Of a stretch of DNA of 64,000 bases, positions 40,985 through 60,263 are shown in pieces (position 1 is the stretch's first letter; each line of letters starts with the position of its first letter). The notes under the pieces were generated by a model. It ran no database searches, had not been told where the DNA came from, and saw only the letters and a list, made by a program, of their open reading frames with translations. Source of the stretch: Syntrophobacteraceae bacterium (GTDB lineage: Bacteria > Desulfobacterota > Syntrophobacteria > Syntrophobacterales > Syntrophobacteraceae); the NCBI GenBank assembly GCA_031292195.1, contig JARLHP010000127.1:1-64000 (forward strand), given 5' to 3'. Position numbers and translations under genes: made by a program.

Positions 40985-43900
40985 TTATCTCTTTTTATCT
41001 CTTTTGCCCGCGTATTGGGCCAGCGCACGGCCGGTGAGAGATCTTTTGCGGGCTGCGACTATTTTTTGGGGCGGGCCTTCGGCCACTATCAGGCCGCCCT
41101 CGTCCCCGCTGCCCGGCCCGATATCGATAACGTAGTCGCTGGCCCAGATGAAATCGCTATTGTGCTCGATCACCAGAACGGTGTGGCCGTGATCGGTTAG
41201 CGCCCTCAGCACGTCGACCAACCGTTTGGTATCGGCGCGGTGCAGTCCGGTTGTTGGCTCGTCCAGAATGTAGAGGGTGGGGGTCCTGGAGTTGCCCAGT
41301 TCTCCGGCCAGTTTTATTCGCTGCGCCTCGCCTCCCGAAAGCGTTGGACTGGGCTGGCCCAGTTCGAGATAGCCCAGGCCCAGATCGCTTAAGACCTTCA
41401 ACTGCCGCACGATGCGGGGAATTGCGGAAAAAAGCTCCACCGCCTCCTCCACGGGCATGGCCAGGACATCGGCTATGCTCTGCCCCTTGAACCTGATATC
41501 GAGCGTTTCGGTATTGAACCGGCTGCCGCCGCACGTTTCGCAGGGCACGGAGACGTCGGGCAAAAAATTCATTTCCACTTTGGCCCGCCCCTGTCCCTTG
41601 CACTCCTCGCAGCGCCCGCCCTTCACGTTGAACGAAAACCTTCCCGGCCCGAATCCCCGGGCGCGCGCTTCGGGGAGCATGGCGAAAAATTTCCGGATGT
41701 CGTCCCAGACGCCTATGTATGTGGCCGGAATGGATCTGGGTGTTCGCCCGATGGGGTTGTGATCGACTTCCAGGACACGGCGCGGGGGCGTCGCCGTTGC
41801 GGAATCGCCCGGCGTCGGTACGGAGGCGACTCCCTCGTTCCTGGCAAGTGTCTCTCCCAGCCTGCGGTAGACCACCTCTTTTACCAGGGTGCTCTTTCCT
41901 GCGCCGGAGACGCCCGTGACCGAAATAAGCAGACCCAGCGGCACTCTTACGTCCATTCCCTTGAGATTTCTGACACTGGCGTCTTTAAACTCCAGCCAGC
42001 CCCCTTCTCCCGCCTTCTTTCTGGGCGGGATCGACCACAGTTCGTCCAAAGATTTTCCGAACCACTGTCCGGTCAGGGTTTGGCCGTTTGCGGCCAGTTC
42101 CTCGAAGCTTCCCTCGGCGATCACTTTGCCGCCGCTTTTTCCCGCCCCGGGCCCCAGTTCCACCACCACGTCGGCCTGCTTCATCGTTTCGGTATCGTGC
42201 TCGACGATAATGACCGTATTCCCCTTGTCCCGCAGCTTCCGCAGACTATCGAGCAGTTTGCTGTTGTCGGCCGGATGAAGGCCGATGGTAGGTTCATCCA
42301 GGATGTAACAGACGCCTCGCAGGTTGGAACCCAGTTGAGCGGCCAGACGTATCCTCTGGGTTTCGCCTCCCGAGAGGGTTTCGCCCGACCTGTCGAGAGA
42401 GAGGTAGCCCAACCCCACTTTCTCCAGGAATGAGAGCCTCTGGGTCAATTCCTTTGAAATCGGTTCGGCCACGGGGAGTTCCTCCCGGCTGAAGCGAAGC
42501 TTTTTCCACAGGGCCTCGAGTTCGGATACTCTCAAACCGCTCATCTGGGCGATATTGAGATCCCGAAAATAGACCGACCGGGCCTGGGCATTGAGCCTGC
42601 CGCCCCCGCAATCGGGACAGTCCAGATCGTCGTACATGGGCTGAACCCACTTCCACGCCTCATGTTCTTCCGAGACCCCCTCCAGGATTTGCAGCACCCC
42701 GGAAAACTTCCCCTTCCTGCCGTGCAAAATAGTCTCCCACACGGAATCATCCAGACTCGACGCCGGTTTTTCCGGGTCCACCCTGAGCTCGGACTTGACG
42801 GCGCGCTCGAATTTGTCCGCCTCCCGCCTCGAACCTCGCCACACCGAAGAACGGAGAAAAGCGAACAGCCCGGCTTTAAGAGAGACGTCGGGGGCGCCGC
42901 GCAGCCGGTCCACGGCCACCCGCTTTGCCCTTCCCAGGCCCATGCAGGCCGGGCAATACCCCTGCCTGCTGTTGAAGGAAAAAAGCCTCGGATCGAGGGG
43001 CGCAAGCCCCGAATCGCACGCCGGGCAGTAGAGATGCCGGCTGAACACCCTTGTCTCTCCCCCGCCGGTATCGAGGTGGAGAATGCCTCCGCCCATGGCC
43101 AGGCCGCGGCGAACCGCATTGAGCAGTTCCTCGGGGGTCACCCCGCCATGGTCCAGGCCCGGCAGGAGGGCCTCGATATCGTGTTCGCGCCGCCGCGCAA
43201 GCTCGGGCACGGGGCTGAGAACCACGTAGCGGCCGTCCACCCTCGCCTGCTCGAATCCCAGGCGCGCAAGGCGCGCGAAAAGATCGCGATATATTCCCTT
43301 GCGTCCGTGCACCAGCGGCGCCAGGAGTTTAATCCCGCCGCTCGCGGCCTCCTGCCGTACGCGCGAAAGAATATCGTCGACGCTCAGGGTTTCGAGCTCC
43401 CGGCCGCACTGCGGGCAACGCTGCCTGCCCAGCTTGGCGTAAAGAAGCCGCAGCAGGTGGTAGGTCTCGGTAATGGTGCCGACCGTCGATCTTCTGCCGA
43501 ACTGGCTGGTCCTCTGCTCGATGGCGATGGTGGGGGCAAGCCCCACGATCTGGTCGACCTCCGGCTTTTCCATGATCTTAAAATACTGGCGCACGTAGGA
43601 AGAAAGGCATTCCAGGTACCGGCGCTGGCCTTCGGCGAAAATCACGTCGAAAGCCAGGGTGGATTTGCCCGAACCGCTCAGACCGGTCAAGACGCTCATT
43701 TTGCCGCGGGGAAGCCGGATTTCGTCGATGTCCAGGTTGTGCTCCCGCGCTCCGCGTATGATAATCTGATCCTGCTTCTCTCGCGCCGGTCGCGGGCGTG
43801 GCGCCTCGACCGGCAAGCGGTCCTGCGAAATCTCCGGGCGCGAACACCTCTCCCCGGATAAGGAATAGTGTGCCACGGGCTCGGCCGCCTCCAGAAAAGA

Positions 43901-46840
43901 GCCGGAATAAGGCATGGAAATTTGAGCCAGCCGCTCGGCCAGATAGCGTCCGGTTATGCTGTGCGAACACTCCGCCACCGCTTCGGGGGAACCTTCGCAA
44001 ACGATCCGCCCGCCTTCCTCCCCTCCTTCGGGGCCAAGATCGACTATCCAGTCGCAGGCGGCCAGAAGATCCAGGTTGTGTTCGACCAAAAGGACGGTGT
44101 GGCCCTTTTCGACCAACTTGCCCAGGACCCCGATCAGCTTGGCTATGTCGTCCTGGTGCAGCCCGGTGGTCGGCTCATCCAGGATGAACAGATTGGAGCG
44201 GGCCGGTTGCCGGCCGCTCCCATCGTCGGCCTGCCGCGAACCGGGCATGGAGAGATGGCGGATGAGCTTCAGCCTTTGAGCTTCCCCGCCGGAAAAAGTG
44301 CTGAGAGGCTGGCCCATGCGGATATAATCCAGACCTATCTCCGTTACGGGTCCCAGGGCGTCGGCCAACTGGCGGTTTTTGGGGAAGAGCTCCAGAATTT
44401 CCCGCGAACTCATATCCAGCATGTCGCCGATCGACACACCCCGCAATTTTATATCCAGCACCTCCTGCTTGAACCTTTTGCCGTTGCATTGAGGACAGCG
44501 CACCAGGACGTCTGCCAGAAACTGCATTTCCACGCGCTGGAAGCCCTCGCCCGAACAGGTCTCGCACCTTCCCCCCGGCACGTTGAACGAAAAATGCTTG
44601 GCTGAAAAACCTTTGGCCATGGCTTCCGGGGTAGCCGCCAGCATCTTTCGGAGCGGATCCAGCGCCTTCGTGTAGGTCAGGAGGTTGGCCCTGGGAGTGC
44701 GACCCACCGGCTGCTGGTCGACCAGTATGACGTCACTTACGTTTTCCGCCCCGGCGATATCGTCGTGAAGACCGGGGGCCTCCGCGGGCCGGCCGGTTTT
44801 TCTAAGCCACCCCTGGTACAACGTTTTTTCCACCAGGGTGCTTTTCCCCGAGCCTGAAACCCCGCTCACCCCGACCATGAGTCCCAGGGGAATCGAAACG
44901 TCTATGGCCTTCAGGTTGTTTTCACGCGCGCCGGTAATGGTGAGTTTTCTCCAGGGGTGAGGCGGCCGGCGCAAAAGGGATTCGGGCAGCACCGATTTTT
45001 GGCCCGAAAGATAGGCCCCCGTGAGGCTCCCGGCGCAGCTTGGGAGTTGCGCGGGCGGCCCCTGGAACACCACTTTGCCCCCCCGTTCGCCAGCACCCGG
45101 CCCCATATCGATCACTTCATCGGAAAAACGGATCATTCCGGGGTCGTGTTCGACCATAACGACGCTGTTTCCCATCGTCACCAACCGATCCAACTGGTCA
45201 ACCAGCCGCTTCTGGTCGCGGGCATGCAGCCCTACGCTCGGCTCGTCGAGCACATAGAGCACATTTACCAGCGCCGACCCCAGCGCCTTGGTGAGATGCA
45301 CCCGCTGCACCTCCCCGCCGGAAAGCGTTCTGGACTGACGGTCCAGCGAGAGGTAGTGAAGCCCCACGGCCATCAGGAATTCCAGTCTGCTCCGGGTTTC
45401 GCTCACCAGCAACCGCGCTGCCGGGTCGTTCGCTATTTCCGGCCACTCGCCCCCGAAAAAAGTGCTCAGCCTGGCTATGCTCAAGGAGGCAAGCTCGGCG
45501 ATATTGGCCCCGCGCAGCCGGTAGAGAAGAGTGGCGGGCTGAAAGCGCGAGCCGCCGCAGGTCTCGCAGGGAACGTAGGCGCGGTATCGTGACAGGTAGA
45601 CCCGGACGTGCATTTTGTAGGTCCTGGTTTCCAGCCACTCGAAAAATCCCTTTATTCCGTAATAGCCTTTCGTTCCGTTTATAATTTTGTTCCTGGCGGA
45701 TTCGGAGAGTTCCAGGAATGGAATATCCACCGGGATCTTTTCTTTTTTGCAAAAATCGAGCAGCTCGACATACTCATCCCGGTCCGTGCCGAATGGTTTT
45801 ACCGCGCCCTTTTCGATGCTGAGGCCCCTGTCCGGAATGACCAGGTCTATGTCCACGCCGATCGTCCGGCCAAAGCCGCGGCAAACCGGGCACGCCCCGA
45901 TGGGACTGTTGAAGGAGAAAAGGTTGGGAGTGGCGGGAGGTATCTGCAAACCGTTTCCGCAATCGGCGCAGGAAAGCTCGGAGCTGAAACGGATGATCCG
46001 GTCGGGCATAACCACCGCCGCGACCCGTCCGGCCCCGGCGGTGTAGGCCGTGGTAATGGAATCGAGCACCCGCTGCCGCGCCACACTCCCCCAGCGCAAC
46101 CGGTCGACCACAACCAGCGGCGGCGGCGGCGGCGTAGCGCCGCTGCCGGGTTTGCCTCGCCCGGACGAGAGGATTTTTCCAGTCTGCGGCTCTGATCGGC
46201 GTGGCGCAGCCGCCGGGGCGGTGGGACCGCCTGCCGGGGTTGCCTCGCCCTCCCCTCGGGCCTTTCCTTGCTCTGTGGAAGCTGACAGGTCCAGCACGGC
46301 CCCGTTTTCAAAGATTCGCAGAAAACCCTGCGAAATCAGCCGCCCGCGCCAGTCCTCTTCCCCGTTGACGGCATAGGGGAAACAAATCAGCACCCGGTCT
46401 TCGGCCTTGAGCTCGCTCAGCCTGGAGTAAATCGTCTCGGGCGTGTCTTTGCCCACCGGCCTGCCGCACGACGGACAACCCGGCACTCCCAGCCTTGCAA
46501 ATAAAAGCTTCAGGTAGTCGTTAATTTCGGTTATTGTCCCCACCGTGGAACGGGAACTGCGCACCGCCGTGCCCGATTCTATGGCGATGCTGGGAGGAAT
46601 TCCCTCGATTAGGTCGGCTTCGGGCGGATCCATCCGTTCCAGGAACTGGCGGGCGTAAGGGGAAAAAGTCTCGACGTACCGGCGCTGCCCCTCGGCATAA
46701 AGGGTGTGCAGCGCAAGGCTCGATTTGCCGGACCCGCTCACCCCGGTAAGGGCGATCAGCCGGTATAGCGGAATGTCGAGATCGAGGTTCTTGAGATTAT
46801 GCTGGCGAACGCCGCGAAGGCGGATAACGTCCTGATCCAA
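40985..46840 (-). CDS. uvrA: Double-length UvrA (tandem fusion of two UvrA proteins)
   Basis: A protein of about 1950 residues, twice the usual ~940. Each half is a complete UvrA with two ABC ATPase units. The four Walker A motifs read [30 protein letters not shown] and [10 protein letters not shown], each paired with an LSGGE signature. Zinc-module Cys sets such as '[20 protein letters not shown]' and '[20 protein letters not shown]' are in both halves. UvrA recognises bulky DNA lesions and loads UvrB, normally as a dimer; this is a covalent dimer. A Pro/Gly-rich insert lies near residue 210-265. The TTG at 46840 with GGAG upstream is preferred. The frame is open to 46924 but runs into repeats. 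Confidence 0.93.
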
Positions 46841-46860
46841 TAGTAAAAACTCCAAGTTCG

Positions 46861-47152
46861 GTGAACAGTGATCAGCGAACAGTGAGCAGCAATGGGATGA
46901 TGTTATTTCTGTTTCACTCTTCACTGATCACTGTTTTTAACACACTGAGGCCGGCCTTGAAAAGCGCCGGGTATTTCAAATCAGTGAACAGTGAGCGGTG
47001 ATGAGTGACGAGCGGGCGTAACCGGATGTTTGTTCTGTTCACTGCTCACTCTTCACTGCTCACTCTTCACTGGTTTTAGGAGGTTTTTTTCTGTTCACTG
47101 GTTTTAGTTTTTTTCTATTCACTATTCACTATTCACGATTCACTGGTTTTAA
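46861..47152. repeat. TTCACTG/CAGTGAA repeat tract between uvrA and mutS
   Basis: The gap between the divergent repair genes is made of imperfect short units such as CAGTGATCAGCGAACAGTG, TTCACTGCTCACTCTTCACT and ATTCACTATTCACTATTCAC, in both orientations. It reaches the mutS start codon, leaving no ribosome site there (…GGTTTTAA-ATG). A related block is at 37413-37460. Promoters for both genes must lie within or beside it. Such tracts are prone to slippage. Confidence 0.85.
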
Positions 47153-52001: not shown

Positions 52002-52020
52002 TATGATATTTTCTGAGGAG
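52002..52020 (+). promoter_or_regulatory. Candidate -10 box and ribosome site of the ATPase-TOPRIM pair
   Basis: TATGAT at 52002-52007 resembles a -10 box, but no good -35 was found. GAGGAG at 52015-52020 lies seven bases before the ATG at 52028 and is a strong ribosome site. If the TATGAT is real, the message would be almost leaderless upstream of the ribosome site. The 93-base gap after the exoribonuclease gene suggests an own promoter. Confidence 0.35.
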
Positions 52021-52027
52021 CACGCCT

Positions 52028-53149
52028 ATGGCGCCTAAAATCGTCACTTTGGACATCCAGCATTTTCGAGCGCTTCGTCAGCTCAAAATCGACCGTATTG
52101 GCCGGGTCAATCTTCTGACAGGACGAAATAATACCGGGAAATCATCGGTGCTGGAAGCCTTACGTATTCTTGCCTCTGACGCCGACCCGGCGATTATCAA
52201 CAGCATCCTCCGTTACAGGGAAGAGGACTTGGGTAATACGGAGGAGTCGCCGTCGATTGCCGCAGAGGGTTTATTTCAGCTAGCGAGCCTATTCCATGGT
52301 TTCCCTCGGTTCTCCTCGGAGATCGATCCCATAAAGATCGCTTCGAGCGGCGGATATCGTCCCATGCGGCTGTCGATTAAGGTCGGGTTATTTTCGGAGG
52401 TGCGGGAACCGGATGGGACAAGGAAACTTGTCCCTCGGCAGCAAACCCTTTTGGACGATGATGAGGGCCTGCCGGCGCTCGTAATCGAAGTCGGCGAAAC
52501 ACGACGCATTCTCTCTATCGATTACCCTCGGCGTTATGCATCACGCGGCATGTTGCGAACCGACATGACAGGTGACTCCCGTCTTCCATGCGTATATGTC
52601 AGCCCATACGGCGGCGAGCAGACAGCGACGCTTGGAAAGCTCTGGGACAAGATAGCGCTCTCCGATCTCGAAAAAGACGTTGTAGATGCTCTGCGTATCA
52701 TTGATCCCGTGATCTCGGCCGTCTCCATGGTTGGGGGCGAAGGACCAAGACAGAGCCGCACCGCTATTGTCCGCACGGCAGGTTTTCCACGCCCGGTCCC
52801 CCTTCGCTCTTTTGGTGACGGACTGAACCGTCTTTTCAGCATCATAGTGTCACTAGTCAACGCTAAAGACGGATTGCTACTCATCGACGAGTTTGAAAAC
52901 GGGATGCACTACACGGTTCAGGAGGACGCTTGGCGACTCATTTTTAAACTTGCCGGCCGTCTTGACATCCAGGTGGTGGCAACCACACACAGTTGGGACA
53001 CGGTCCTGGCTTTCCAAAAGGCTGCCGCAGACGACCCGGAGGAAGGGGCGCTCATTCGCTTATCGCGCAAAGGTGAGGAGATTGTGCCGACCGTGTTCGA
53101 TGAAGATGAACTGGCAGTTGTCACGCGCAACGAAATCGAGGTGCGCTGA
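52028..53149 (+). CDS. OLD/AAA_15-type ATPase of a putative two-gene defence module
   Basis: A 373-residue SMC-like ATPase. It starts with the RecF/OLD-type lead 'LDIQHFRALRQLKID' and Walker A 'LLTGRNNTGKSSVLEAL' (Lys38). It has a signature-like 'LRSFGDGLNRLFSI', Walker B 'LLLIDEFENGMHY', and a switch His in 'VVATTHSWDTV'. A nuclease domain is absent; the TOPRIM part is encoded by the next gene, one base downstream. This ATPase-plus-TOPRIM split is the build of PARIS (AriA-AriB) and of OLD-family anti-phage systems. The gene is lower in G+C than its neighbours (one 60-base line counts 29 G/C, against 39 in a line of the preceding exoribonuclease). Defence function is inferred. Confidence 0.85.
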   Translation: MAPKIVTLDIQHFRALRQLKIDRIGRVNLLTGRNNTGKSSVLEALRILASDADPAIINSILRYREEDLGNTEESPSIAAEGLFQLASLFHGFPRFSSEIDPIKIASSGGYRPMRLSIKVGLFSEVREPDGTRKLVPRQQTLLDDDEGLPALVIEVGETRRILSIDYPRRYASRGMLRTDMTGDSRLPCVYVSPYGGEQTATLGKLWDKIALSDLEKDVVDALRIIDPVISAVSMVGGEGPRQSRTAIVRTAGFPRPVPLRSFGDGLNRLFSIIVSLVNAKDGLLLIDEFENGMHYTVQEDAWRLIFKLAGRLDIQVVATTHSWDTVLAFQKAAADDPEEGALIRLSRKGEEIVPTVFDEDELAVVTRNEIEVR

Positions 53150-53150
53150 C

Positions 53151-53789
53151 ATGCCGCCTGTTAAGAAGAGGGTTCTTCTGGTCGAGGGCCCTGACGATGA
53201 ACATGTTCTTAAGCACTTGTGCGGCAATAATGGCGTGCCTCACCTTGATAAGATAGCAGCCTGCGGGGGTGTAGACTGTCTTTTGGAAAGTCTGTCAGTC
53301 CGGTTGAAGGCAAGTGAGTTTGGCGATATTGTCGGGCTGATAGTGGATGCGGATATAGATATTGCTTCGCGATGGCAGGCGGTGAGAGGCCGGCTGATGG
53401 GAGCAGGTTATGAGAGCGTACCAGGCCAACCTTTTGATGACGGCACGATCCTGGATCCTCCTACCGACAAGTTGCTGCCGCGTCTGGGCATCTGGATAAT
53501 GCCCGATAATCGAAGTGATGGTATCCTGGAAGACTTCCTGCGGTTTCTGGTACCTGCCAGGGGGGCAAAGCTTCTGGGCCACGTCGAATCCTGCGTTGCG
53601 GCCATTCCCGATGGACAACGACTCTTCGGCCCACTCGCCGAGCCGAAGGCCATCGTTCACACCTGGCTGGCCTGGCAGAAAGAGCCGGGGAAACCATTGG
53701 GAACAGCCATTACGGCTCGGTATCTTGATCCGGAAGTACCAGAGGTAGATACTCTCGTGAACTGGCTGAAGCGATTGTACCTTTTTTGA
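53151..53789 (+). CDS. DUF3226 TOPRIM-fold protein, partner of the ATPase
   Basis: A 212-residue protein matching the DUF3226 pattern. It opens with 'RVLLVEGPDDEHVLKHL' (Glu12) and has 'GLIVDADIDIASRW' (Asp66, Asp68), the Glu and D-x-D that bind metal in TOPRIM nucleases and primases. Later signatures are 'WIMPDNRSDGILEDFLRFL' and 'HTWLAWQKEPGKPLGTAI'. The ATG at 53151 follows the ATPase stop by one base; the frame is open upstream but overlaps that gene. By analogy with AriB/OLD it may be the effector nuclease released or activated by the ATPase. DUF3226 itself has, as far as I know, no settled function. Confidence 0.85.
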   Translation: MPPVKKRVLLVEGPDDEHVLKHLCGNNGVPHLDKIAACGGVDCLLESLSVRLKASEFGDIVGLIVDADIDIASRWQAVRGRLMGAGYESVPGQPFDDGTILDPPTDKLLPRLGIWIMPDNRSDGILEDFLRFLVPARGAKLLGHVESCVAAIPDGQRLFGPLAEPKAIVHTWLAWQKEPGKPLGTAITARYLDPEVPEVDTLVNWLKRLYLF

Positions 53790-59204: not shown

Positions 59205-59275
59205 GAAGACTCGATCGGCATGCCGTCCAGTTCACAGATGCATTTTGAAAGGAAGCTCGGCGACCTGAGGGAAGC
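59201..59275 (-). pseudogene. Fragment of a sulfotransferase gene
   Basis: On the minus strand this reads 'SKCICELDGMPIES' then a stop, matching 'SQCVSQLAAMPIES' in the sulfotransferase encoded at 60458-61324. Fourteen bases are identical (GACTCGATCGGCAT at 59208 and 61164) and the surrounding bases are similar. No start or P-loop is present. It is a remnant of a second copy, left between the tail-anchored sulfotransferase and the AT-rich gene. Confidence 0.5.
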
Positions 59276-59327
59276 CGCATGAAACAAACGTTTTGCGGTG
59301 TTCACCCATCGCTTTTGAGTAGTTCGG

Positions 59328-60179
59328 TTATGCGAAATTTTCAAGAAAGTATCCCCGTGCATTCTCCTCAGCCTCATCGTACAACTCCTTATCGAGTTCT
59401 GTCCGATGACCGGACAAAGAAGACCAGTGATGGTGATTATAATTTCTATTATAATATGCAAATTTATAACCCTTTAAGTGAAGACTCCTGAACCATAGAT
59501 CACCAACATCCACCCTGGCTTGGCCAAAGATAGGGCTGCTGCCATTTGGATGACATTCTTTCATAACTACATTTCTATTTATTAAACACGCCCATTCATT
59601 CAATCTACATTCAGGCAACGGTTTAGGATTTCTTTTATCTATGAGTTCTTTACGTGTCCTTCTATATGGCAAACCCAACTTAAGTACATCTGCATATGAC
59701 GGATTCCATTCATAAAACGTTTCCCCGCTACAAACATTCTTCCGTTGCGCGGGACAATTCCAGCACTGCCCTATTTCCCCTATACCAACATTATCTCCAA
59801 TCTCACGCAGCATATCTCCAACAATATCTCCGGTATATAACACATCATTATGAGTAATATATATAAATTGCTTATCGCTATTCTCAATACCATATTGGTA
59901 CCTTACCATGTATCTATACTTCTTGAAATAATAATTAACACGATGGTGCCAAAAGGTGTATTTATCTGGTTTAAATATAATTAAATTGCCAATATGCTCC
60001 TGGATCCAGTCTATATTTTCACCATATGGCTGTTGATTTTCCTTGATCAGGAAAATTTTATCAATCTTGTTCCCGGAATACTTTAATAAGCTTTTGAGCG
60101 TACACAACGTTTGCCACGGCTTACCGTACACATTGATGACTACGTCCACCCGGCTCTCTTCCAAAATCCCCGAATGCAT
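59328..60179 (-). CDS. Putative glycosyltransferase, AT-rich and probably acquired
   Basis: A protein of about 283 residues. 'VDVVINVYGKPWQTLCTLKSLL' and 'KIFLIKENQQ' at the start resemble GT-A enzymes, and 'IYITHNDVLYTGDI' could be the metal-binding segment. A Cys pair lies in 'CWNCPAQRKNVC'. The C-terminal half has 'YNHHHWSSLSGHRTELDKEL'. The gene is strikingly AT-rich; one 60-base line (59881-59940) has 16 G/C. The neighbours are near 55-60%. This points to recent transfer. The ATG at 60179 is preferred because the frame upstream of it lies in a dispersed repeat. Confidence 0.7.
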   Translation of the reverse strand: MHSGILEESRVDVVINVYGKPWQTLCTLKSLLKYSGNKIDKIFLIKENQQPYGENIDWIQEHIGNLIIFKPDKYTFWHHRVNYYFKKYRYMVRYQYGIENSDKQFIYITHNDVLYTGDIVGDMLREIGDNVGIGEIGQCWNCPAQRKNVCSGETFYEWNPSYADVLKLGLPYRRTRKELIDKRNPKPLPECRLNEWACLINRNVVMKECHPNGSSPIFGQARVDVGDLWFRSLHLKGYKFAYYNRNYNHHHWSSLSGHRTELDKELYDEAEENARGYFLENFA

Positions 60180-60263
60180 TATTTTCCCCCGTCCACAGGT
60201 TTCCTGACTGCGCACCCAATGTTGTTGAGTTAAGCGACTCAACTGTGCTGCTCTTTTTTGAGC

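What the first reader, a model, noticed from the sequence alone, without database searches (positions are those of the whole stretch)
52028..53789. Candidate new defence module: OLD/AAA_15 ATPase plus DUF3226 TOPRIM protein
Seen: two genes one base apart, an SMC/OLD-type ATPase without a nuclease domain and a TOPRIM protein with Glu12 and Asp66-x-Asp68. They form a compact unit between an exoribonuclease gene and msbA, with visibly lower G+C than the upstream gene. Known: in PARIS an AAA_15 ATPase (AriA) works with a DUF4435 TOPRIM nuclease (AriB), and OLD/Gabija proteins join the same two folds. Inferred: this is a split-OLD system in which DUF3226 replaces DUF4435, possibly a PARIS-like sensor-effector pair for phage or plasmid DNA.
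Basis: partly seen in the sequence, partly recalled or inferred. Interest (0 to 1): 0.8.

Follow-up and report, generated by a model that had tools for sequence, protein, structure and literature searches.

The report
Catalogued two-gene ATPase–TOPRIM defence candidate (PDC-M38)
The two neighbouring genes form a real, mobile ATPase-plus-nuclease unit that is already listed in a defence database as the untested candidate 'PDC-M38', most likely an infection sensor that unleashes a nucleic-acid-cutting enzyme; it is not a new system, though its target and trigger are unknown.

Summary
In detail: a 373-aa ABC/OLD-type ATPase (52028-53149) and a 212-aa DUF3226 TOPRIM protein (53151-53789), one base apart. 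It is not new: PADLOC models identify the pair as PDC-M38A (E 1e-90, full length) and PDC-M38B (9e-50), a catalogued but apparently untested candidate. By sequence the ATPase lies nearer AbiLi (3e-62, full length) than AriA (2e-26, partial). DUF3226 shares only the TOPRIM core with DUF4435. The pairing is close to obligate: 75 of 77 assessable homologous loci in at least 14 phyla have the ATPase directly upstream, and the two proteins co-diverge. The module is accessory and mobile. It is absent from 25 relatives of the same family, apart from an ATPase relic at the same site in one congener. It is also essentially the only cargo of about 130 small (~4.2 kb) ColRNAI plasmids, mostly Klebsiella. 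Conserved E12, D16, D66, D68, E127 and K166 fit the two-metal site of OLD nucleases and RNase M5, and E12 aligns with catalytic AriB E26. Best reading: a split-OLD sensor ATPase holding or activating a TOPRIM nuclease that aborts infection. The low-G+C argument is weak; the RNase-msbA location is not conserved.

The parts
52028..53149 (+). OLD/ABC-type ATPase, 373 aa (PDC-M38A; AbiLi/AriA-like), predicted sensor/regulator
   Evidence: Pfam AAA_15/AAA_21; PADLOC PDC-M38A E 1e-90 over 7-373; intact ATPase motifs conserved in 67 homologues
53151..53789 (+). DUF3226 TOPRIM protein, 212 aa (PDC-M38B), predicted metal-dependent nuclease effector
   Evidence: Pfam DUF3226 216 bits; PADLOC PDC-M38B E 9e-50; E12/DxD conserved
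52121..52144 (+). Walker A region of the ATPase (G32-R-N-N-T-G-K-S39)
   Evidence: G32, N34, K38 invariant and G37 66/67 in A5
52886..52891 (+). Walker B Asp287-Glu288
   Evidence: 66/67 and 67/67
52988..52990 (+). Switch histidine His321 (TTHS motif)
   Evidence: invariant in 67 homologues
53184..53186 (+). TOPRIM Glu12; aligns with catalytic AriB Glu26
   Evidence: 76/76 aligned homologues; AriB alignment (E 0.78, weak)
53346..53354 (+). TOPRIM DxD motif Asp66-Ala67-Asp68
   Evidence: 77/77 homologues; aligns with the DAD of DUF4435
53529..53531 (+). Glu127 of the G-x-LED motif, candidate second-metal ligand (compare Bp OLD E508 / RNase M5 E110)
   Evidence: 76/77 plus one Asp; spacing compared with PMC6755086
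53646..53648 (+). Lys166, candidate for the catalytic lysine of OLD nucleases (Bp OLD K562)
   Evidence: 77/77; PMC6755086
53138..53143 (+). GAGGTG: Shine-Dalgarno-like sequence of the TOPRIM gene, lying inside the codons for the conserved C-terminal E-V of the ATPase
   Evidence: sequence reading; E371 and R373 conserved
52015..52019 (+). GAGGA: Shine-Dalgarno-like sequence of the ATPase gene
   Evidence: sequence reading

Best explanation
The pair is a member of PADLOC candidate PDC-M38: a split-OLD, AbiL/PARIS-like two-gene module carried as mobile accessory DNA. Shown: two adjacent genes, an OLD-type ABC ATPase with intact nucleotide-binding motifs and a DUF3226 TOPRIM protein with conserved E, DxD and additional acidic/Lys residues, almost always found together and co-diverging. 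Inferred: the ATPase oligomerises, binds the TOPRIM protein and keeps it inactive or unassembled; an invader-derived signal (a phage protein or nucleic-acid structure) changes the ATPase; the TOPRIM protein then cleaves RNA (tRNA, as AriB does) or DNA by two-metal catalysis, stopping growth or replication of the infected cell before the phage or plasmid spreads. I favour a host-directed RNase (abortive infection) over direct cutting of invader DNA at roughly 60:40, on the analogy with AriB and the toxic F. nucleatum AbiLii; nothing here measures the substrate.
For: PDC-M38A/B full-length matches. All 10 ATPases of A1 match PDC-M38A and AbiLi; 11 of 12 diverse TOPRIMs match PDC-M38B, 5 also match AbiLii (best 1e-6) and 3 AriB (best 7e-4). 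ATPase directly upstream in 75 of 80 loci; 3 of the rest are at contig ends, one is a decayed module, one is solo. In the plasmid records examined the two genes are adjacent, and all 9 records with a P0002 match also have a P0001 match. Distance matrices of the two proteins correlate, r = 0.73 against at most 0.20 in 2000 shuffles. Two-metal residue set E12, D16, D66, D68, E127, K166; E12 aligns with AriB E26, whose E26A mutant is inactive. Patchy distribution: 12 of 395 genomes of the phylum over the family cut-off, 1 of 26 of the family. Essentially sole cargo of 3.8-4.7 kb ColRNAI plasmids.
Against: No direct functional evidence for any DUF3226 protein: no paper in the held library names DUF3226 or PDC-M38. 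No match in phages or viral contigs, which is neutral for defence. Neighbouring genes of the homologous loci contain only scattered defence genes, with no control set to prove enrichment. The window locus itself lies among housekeeping genes, not in a defence island. No structure could be predicted, so complex formation and the metal site rest on sequence.
Confidence: 0.65

Rival explanations
1. DNA-directed nuclease: an OLD/Gabija-like split enzyme in which the ATPase recognises invader DNA ends or structures and the TOPRIM protein degrades that DNA directly, without host suicide.
For: Residue pattern and spacing resemble Class 2 OLD DNA nucleases; the ATPase profile's best solved relatives include an OLD protein, RecF, Rad50 and GajA.
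Against: The only credible sequence-alignable effector in the PDB is AriB, a tRNase, and only weakly; split two-gene organisation is that of PARIS/AbiL rather than OLD/GajA.
Confidence: 0.22
2. Plasmid addiction or toxin-antitoxin module: the TOPRIM protein is a toxin restrained by the ATPase, and the pair persists on small plasmids and chromosomes by stabilising its carrier; defence is secondary or absent.
For: Essentially the only cargo of 3.8-4.7 kb ColRNAI plasmids; F. nucleatum AbiLii is toxic in E. coli (PMC3985639); AriA/AriB has a restrained-toxin logic.
Against: In that paper the partner AbiLi did not neutralise AbiLii. In congener G413 the ATPase is broken and the TOPRIM gene lost; loss of the restrainer should be costly, although the order of the losses is unknown.
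Confidence: 0.1
3. Housekeeping nucleic-acid repair or maturation (RecF/OLD- and RNase M5-like) unrelated to invaders.
For: In the window the genes sit next to mutS, uvrA and an RNase gene.
Against: Absent from 25 of 26 genomes of the family, patchy in the phylum, spread across many phyla, plasmid-borne, variable neighbours. The mutS/RNase neighbourhood lacks the TOPRIM gene in congeners.
Confidence: 0.03

Closest known systems
PDC-M38 (PADLOC candidate system)
   Same: Both proteins match its models full length, adjacent and co-directional.
   Different: No difference found; this is a member. Its function appears untested in the held literature (general remark on PDCs in PMC12988326).
AbiL (AbiLi/AbiLii) of Lactococcus
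   Same: Two-gene ATPase plus effector; ATPase matches PADLOC AbiLi over its full length (3e-62); some DUF3226 relatives match AbiLii (best 1e-6). PMC12409363 lists AbiL among ABC ATPase-Toprim systems.
   Different: P0002 itself does not match the AbiLii model at E<=1. The lactococcal sequences could not be obtained for direct comparison.
PARIS (AriA/AriB)
   Same: Separate ATPase and TOPRIM genes; ATPase matches AriA (2e-26, partial); E12 aligns with AriB E26.
   Different: TOPRIM partner is DUF3226, not DUF4435; only the TOPRIM core (about 78 columns) aligns (hhalign 87.6%); ATPase is about 90 aa shorter than the solved AriA (373 against 464 aa).
OLD (Class 1/2) and Gabija GajA
   Same: Same two folds; matching candidate two-metal residue pattern E-xxx-D, DxD, E, K.
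   [quoted passage not shown] here two genes. No GajB-type helicase among the adjacent genes.

Membership tests
PDC-M38 | Gene A matches PDC-M38A over its length | tested here: met
   E 1e-90, 303 bits, residues 7-373 to model 4-383 of 383
PDC-M38 | Gene B matches PDC-M38B over its length | tested here: met
   E 9e-50, residues 5-210 to model 12-218 of 220
PDC-M38 | The two genes are adjacent and co-directional | tested here: met
AbiL | AbiLi-type ATPase | tested here: met
   PADLOC AbiLi model E 3e-62 full length, second to PDC-M38A
AbiL | AbiLii effector | tested here: not met
   P0002 gives no AbiLii match at E<=1, although 5 of 12 members of the DUF3226 alignment do
PARIS | AriA-type ATPase | tested here: inconclusive
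   AriA models match partially (best 2e-26) but far below PDC-M38A and AbiLi
PARIS | DUF4435 (AriB) TOPRIM effector | tested here: not met
   P0002 matches DUF3226, not DUF4435 or AriB; profile comparison aligns the TOPRIM core only
OLD nuclease (Class 1/2) | ATPase and TOPRIM fused in one protein | tested here: not met
   Two separate ORFs with a stop codon between
OLD nuclease (Class 1/2) | Two-metal TOPRIM active site | tested here: inconclusive
   Candidate residues conserved and consistent with PMC6755086, but no structure could be made
Gabija | GajA plus UvrD-like GajB helicase | tested here: not met
   Neighbours are an RNase II/R-family gene and an MsbA-type transporter
Any anti-phage defence system | Protection against phage or plasmid | not testable with these tools
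   Needs a challenge assay

The most novel reading that the evidence does not exclude
DUF3226 defines an effector class distinct from AriB, with its own C-terminal domain (IMPDN...LED...KA..HTWLAWQ..PG.P.G) and a nucleic-acid target not yet described, and the pair is the self-sufficient payload of widespread 4-kb Klebsiella plasmids, giving their hosts immunity or the plasmid a means of persistence.
Probability: 0.3. Interest if true: 0.55.

Novelty: new member of a known kind. Interest (0 to 1): 0.35.

Why it matters
It removes a claim of novelty (the pair is PDC-M38). It also turns an uncharacterised candidate into a testable one: a near-obligate pair, named active-site residues for mutants, and ready-made natural constructs (about 4-kb plasmids on which the pair is essentially the only cargo). 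If shown to act, it would tie AbiL, PARIS and DUF3226 into one split-OLD group and ask what each TOPRIM effector cuts.

Tried and rejected
Structure prediction of both proteins with deep alignments (A4, A5): tool switched off, so no fold search was possible. Viral contigs and phage records: no homologue. AbiLii family search in the phylum rang nowhere, control genomes included, so it is uninformative. PDB profile searches gave only weak AriB and PH0156 (2p62) TOPRIM-motif matches, alongside an evident chance match to an engineered repeat protein. An apparent ATPase-TOPRIM fusion (L044) is a deletion product: 5' end of the ATPase joined to a TOPRIM gene with a damaged 3' end, so it is no Rosetta-stone evidence. 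Defence-island enrichment was looked at (148 neighbouring ORFs) but without a control set; scattered defence genes, no conserved third gene. Low G+C as evidence of recent import: rejected as weak. Literature search for the small Klebsiella plasmids: no paper held enough of the terms.

Full report
Observation. The window holds two ORFs, 52028-53149 (373 aa) and 53151-53789 (212 aa), one base apart on the + strand. Pfam finds AAA_15 and AAA_21 in the first and no nuclease domain; the second is DUF3226 at 216 bits against a cut-off of 27. The G+C contrast is with the upstream gene only: 54.8% for both genes, 59.6% for the RNase gene, 53.2% for msbA, 55.8% for the window; GC3 is modestly lower.

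Identity. PADLOC models call the pair PDC-M38A (E 1e-90, full length) and PDC-M38B (9e-50, full length). It is therefore a catalogued candidate, not a new module. PDCs were found by guilt-by-embedding, and validation is pending for most of those in the core defensome (PMC12988326); no held paper mentions PDC-M38 or DUF3226. After PDC-M38A the best match of the ATPase is AbiLi (3e-62, full length), then AriA (2e-26, partial). The 10 ATPases of alignment A1, from the window and from genomes of its phylum, all show PDC-M38A, AbiLi and AriA matches. Of 12 diverse DUF3226 proteins 11 match PDC-M38B, 5 AbiLii (best 1e-6) and 3 AriB (best 7e-4). For the Klebsiella plasmid pair the ATPase scores higher on AbiLi (197 bits) than on PDC-M38A (149). 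Inference: PDC-M38 and AbiL are neighbouring branches of one split-OLD group; PARIS is further away.

Pairing. In the window's phylum 12 of 395 genomes carry DUF3226 over the family cut-off, and an ATPase related to P0001 lies directly upstream in the loci whose contig shows a full module. A scan of one genome per species gave 80 loci from at least 14 phyla (phyla). 75 have the ATPase directly upstream, 3 more begin at a contig end, L044 is a decayed module (ATPase 5' end joined by deletion to the TOPRIM gene) and L089 is solo. Distances between the ATPases and between the TOPRIM proteins of the same loci correlate (r 0.73; at most 0.20 in 2000 shuffles; relatedness of the hosts is not removed). 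The ATPase tree needs 26 changes of phylum label (at least 13 possible), with the nearest relatives of the window in Pseudomonadota, Lentisphaerota, Aminicenantes and Acidobacteriota: consistent with frequent transfer, not proof of it.

Mobility. Among 25 other genomes of the family, including 10 congeners, none has DUF3226. In congener G413 the same site downstream of the RNase gene holds a broken ATPase (frameshifts, ends at the equivalent of window 52881) and no TOPRIM gene. The continuous alignment over mutS, RNase gene and relic is about 80% identical, so the module was probably at this site in their common ancestor and decayed in one lineage. On plasmids the pair occurs in Plesiomonas, Acinetobacter and Citrobacter and, as a diverged form, in 144 records, 138 of them Klebsiella, largely ColRNAI plasmids of about 4.17 kb whose only other annotated genes are rop and a helix-turn-helix protein. 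The same form sits on an E. coli 4.7-kb plasmid and, with its small plasmid backbone, inside a 337-kb conjugative plasmid next to a restriction system. No phage or viral contig match.

Mechanism. ATPase: Walker A (G32, N34, G37, K38), G263-D/E-G265, Walker B D287-E288, G292 and H321 are conserved or invariant in 67 homologues, so an active ATPase is likely. TOPRIM: E12, G13, D66, A67, D68, G124, E127, D128 and K166 are invariant or nearly so in 77 window-type homologues, and E12, D66 and E127 are invariant in the more diverse set, where D68 can be E or N and D16 varies. In B. pseudomallei OLD metal A is bound by E400, D455, D457, metal B by E404 (four residues after E400), T506 and E508, and K562 is catalytic (PMC6755086). 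Here E12 and D16 are four apart, D66/D68 sit 54 and 56 after E12 (55 and 57 in OLD), E127 59 after D68 (51) and K166 39 after E127 (54). The assignment of E127 and K166 is inference from order and conservation. A profile of the family aligns E12 with AriB E26 (E 0.78, weak), and AriB E26A is inactive (PMC12409363). Profile comparison with DUF4435 aligns the E and DxD motifs over 78 columns (87.6% probability) and nothing after them. In PARIS the ATPase hexamer holds AriB inactive until a phage protein releases it as a tRNase; F. nucleatum AbiLii is toxic in E. coli, though AbiLi did not neutralise it (PMC3985639). By analogy I propose a sensor ATPase and a TOPRIM effector that halts the infected cell; the substrate is open.

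Surroundings. The RNase gene and msbA are on different contigs in every congener examined. In G413, G409, G412, G407 and G408 the gene before msbA matches window about 39-40.9 kb; in G410 it matches about 26.5 kb. The window's 40.9-53.85 kb block (tandem UvrA, mutS, RNase gene, module) therefore lies next to msbA only here, by rearrangement or, since this is a draft assembly, possibly misjoining. What follows the RNase gene varies between congeners. The 148 neighbour ORFs scanned at the homologous loci include scattered defence genes (type III methylase, IetA, ShosA, TIR effector, PtuA/AriA/mad3-type ATPases) and mostly ordinary metabolism, with no conserved third gene.

Verdict. Not done: structure, activity, enrichment control, direct comparison with lactococcal AbiL.

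Noticed in passing
window 40985-46924 (-): A 1979-aa ORF that is two UvrA excinuclease proteins in tandem in one reading frame (NCBIfam UvrA equivalog, over 1900 bits, several stretches).
   Followed up: partly
window 46858-47151: Intergenic cluster of degenerate short repeats (TCACTGTTCACT / AACAGTGA type, direct and inverted) between the tandem uvrA and mutS.
   Followed up: no
window about 40900 and about 53850: Synteny breakpoints: in congeners msbA is preceded by other material (window about 39-40.9 kb in most, about 26.5 kb in G410), so the 13-kb block with uvrA-uvrA, mutS, RNase gene and module is rearranged here or misassembled.
   Followed up: partly
L132 4626-6114 (congener G413): Decayed relic of the ATPase at the same site, followed by a MazF-like toxin gene.
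   Followed up: partly
L021 1984-3731; L145 781-2528: About 4.2-kb ColRNAI plasmids, mostly Klebsiella, essentially carry only an ATPase plus DUF3226 pair; some records hold two or three copies of the unit (8.3, 12.5, 15.5 kb).
   Followed up: partly
L003 1498-2157, L005 1498-2160, L006 1432-2088: Some DUF3226 proteins have an N-terminal CPxCx-type stretch resembling half a zinc ribbon, absent from the window protein.
   Followed up: no
window 53138-53146: The ATPase's conserved C-terminal E-V-R is encoded by GAG GTG CGC, so its first two codons double as the Shine-Dalgarno sequence of the TOPRIM gene; whether the E/R conservation is protein- or RNA-driven is open.
   Followed up: no
window 59250-60250: Dip to 37-42% G+C with strong GC skew (-0.16 to -0.31) over a 321-aa ORF on the minus strand; not examined.
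   Followed up: no
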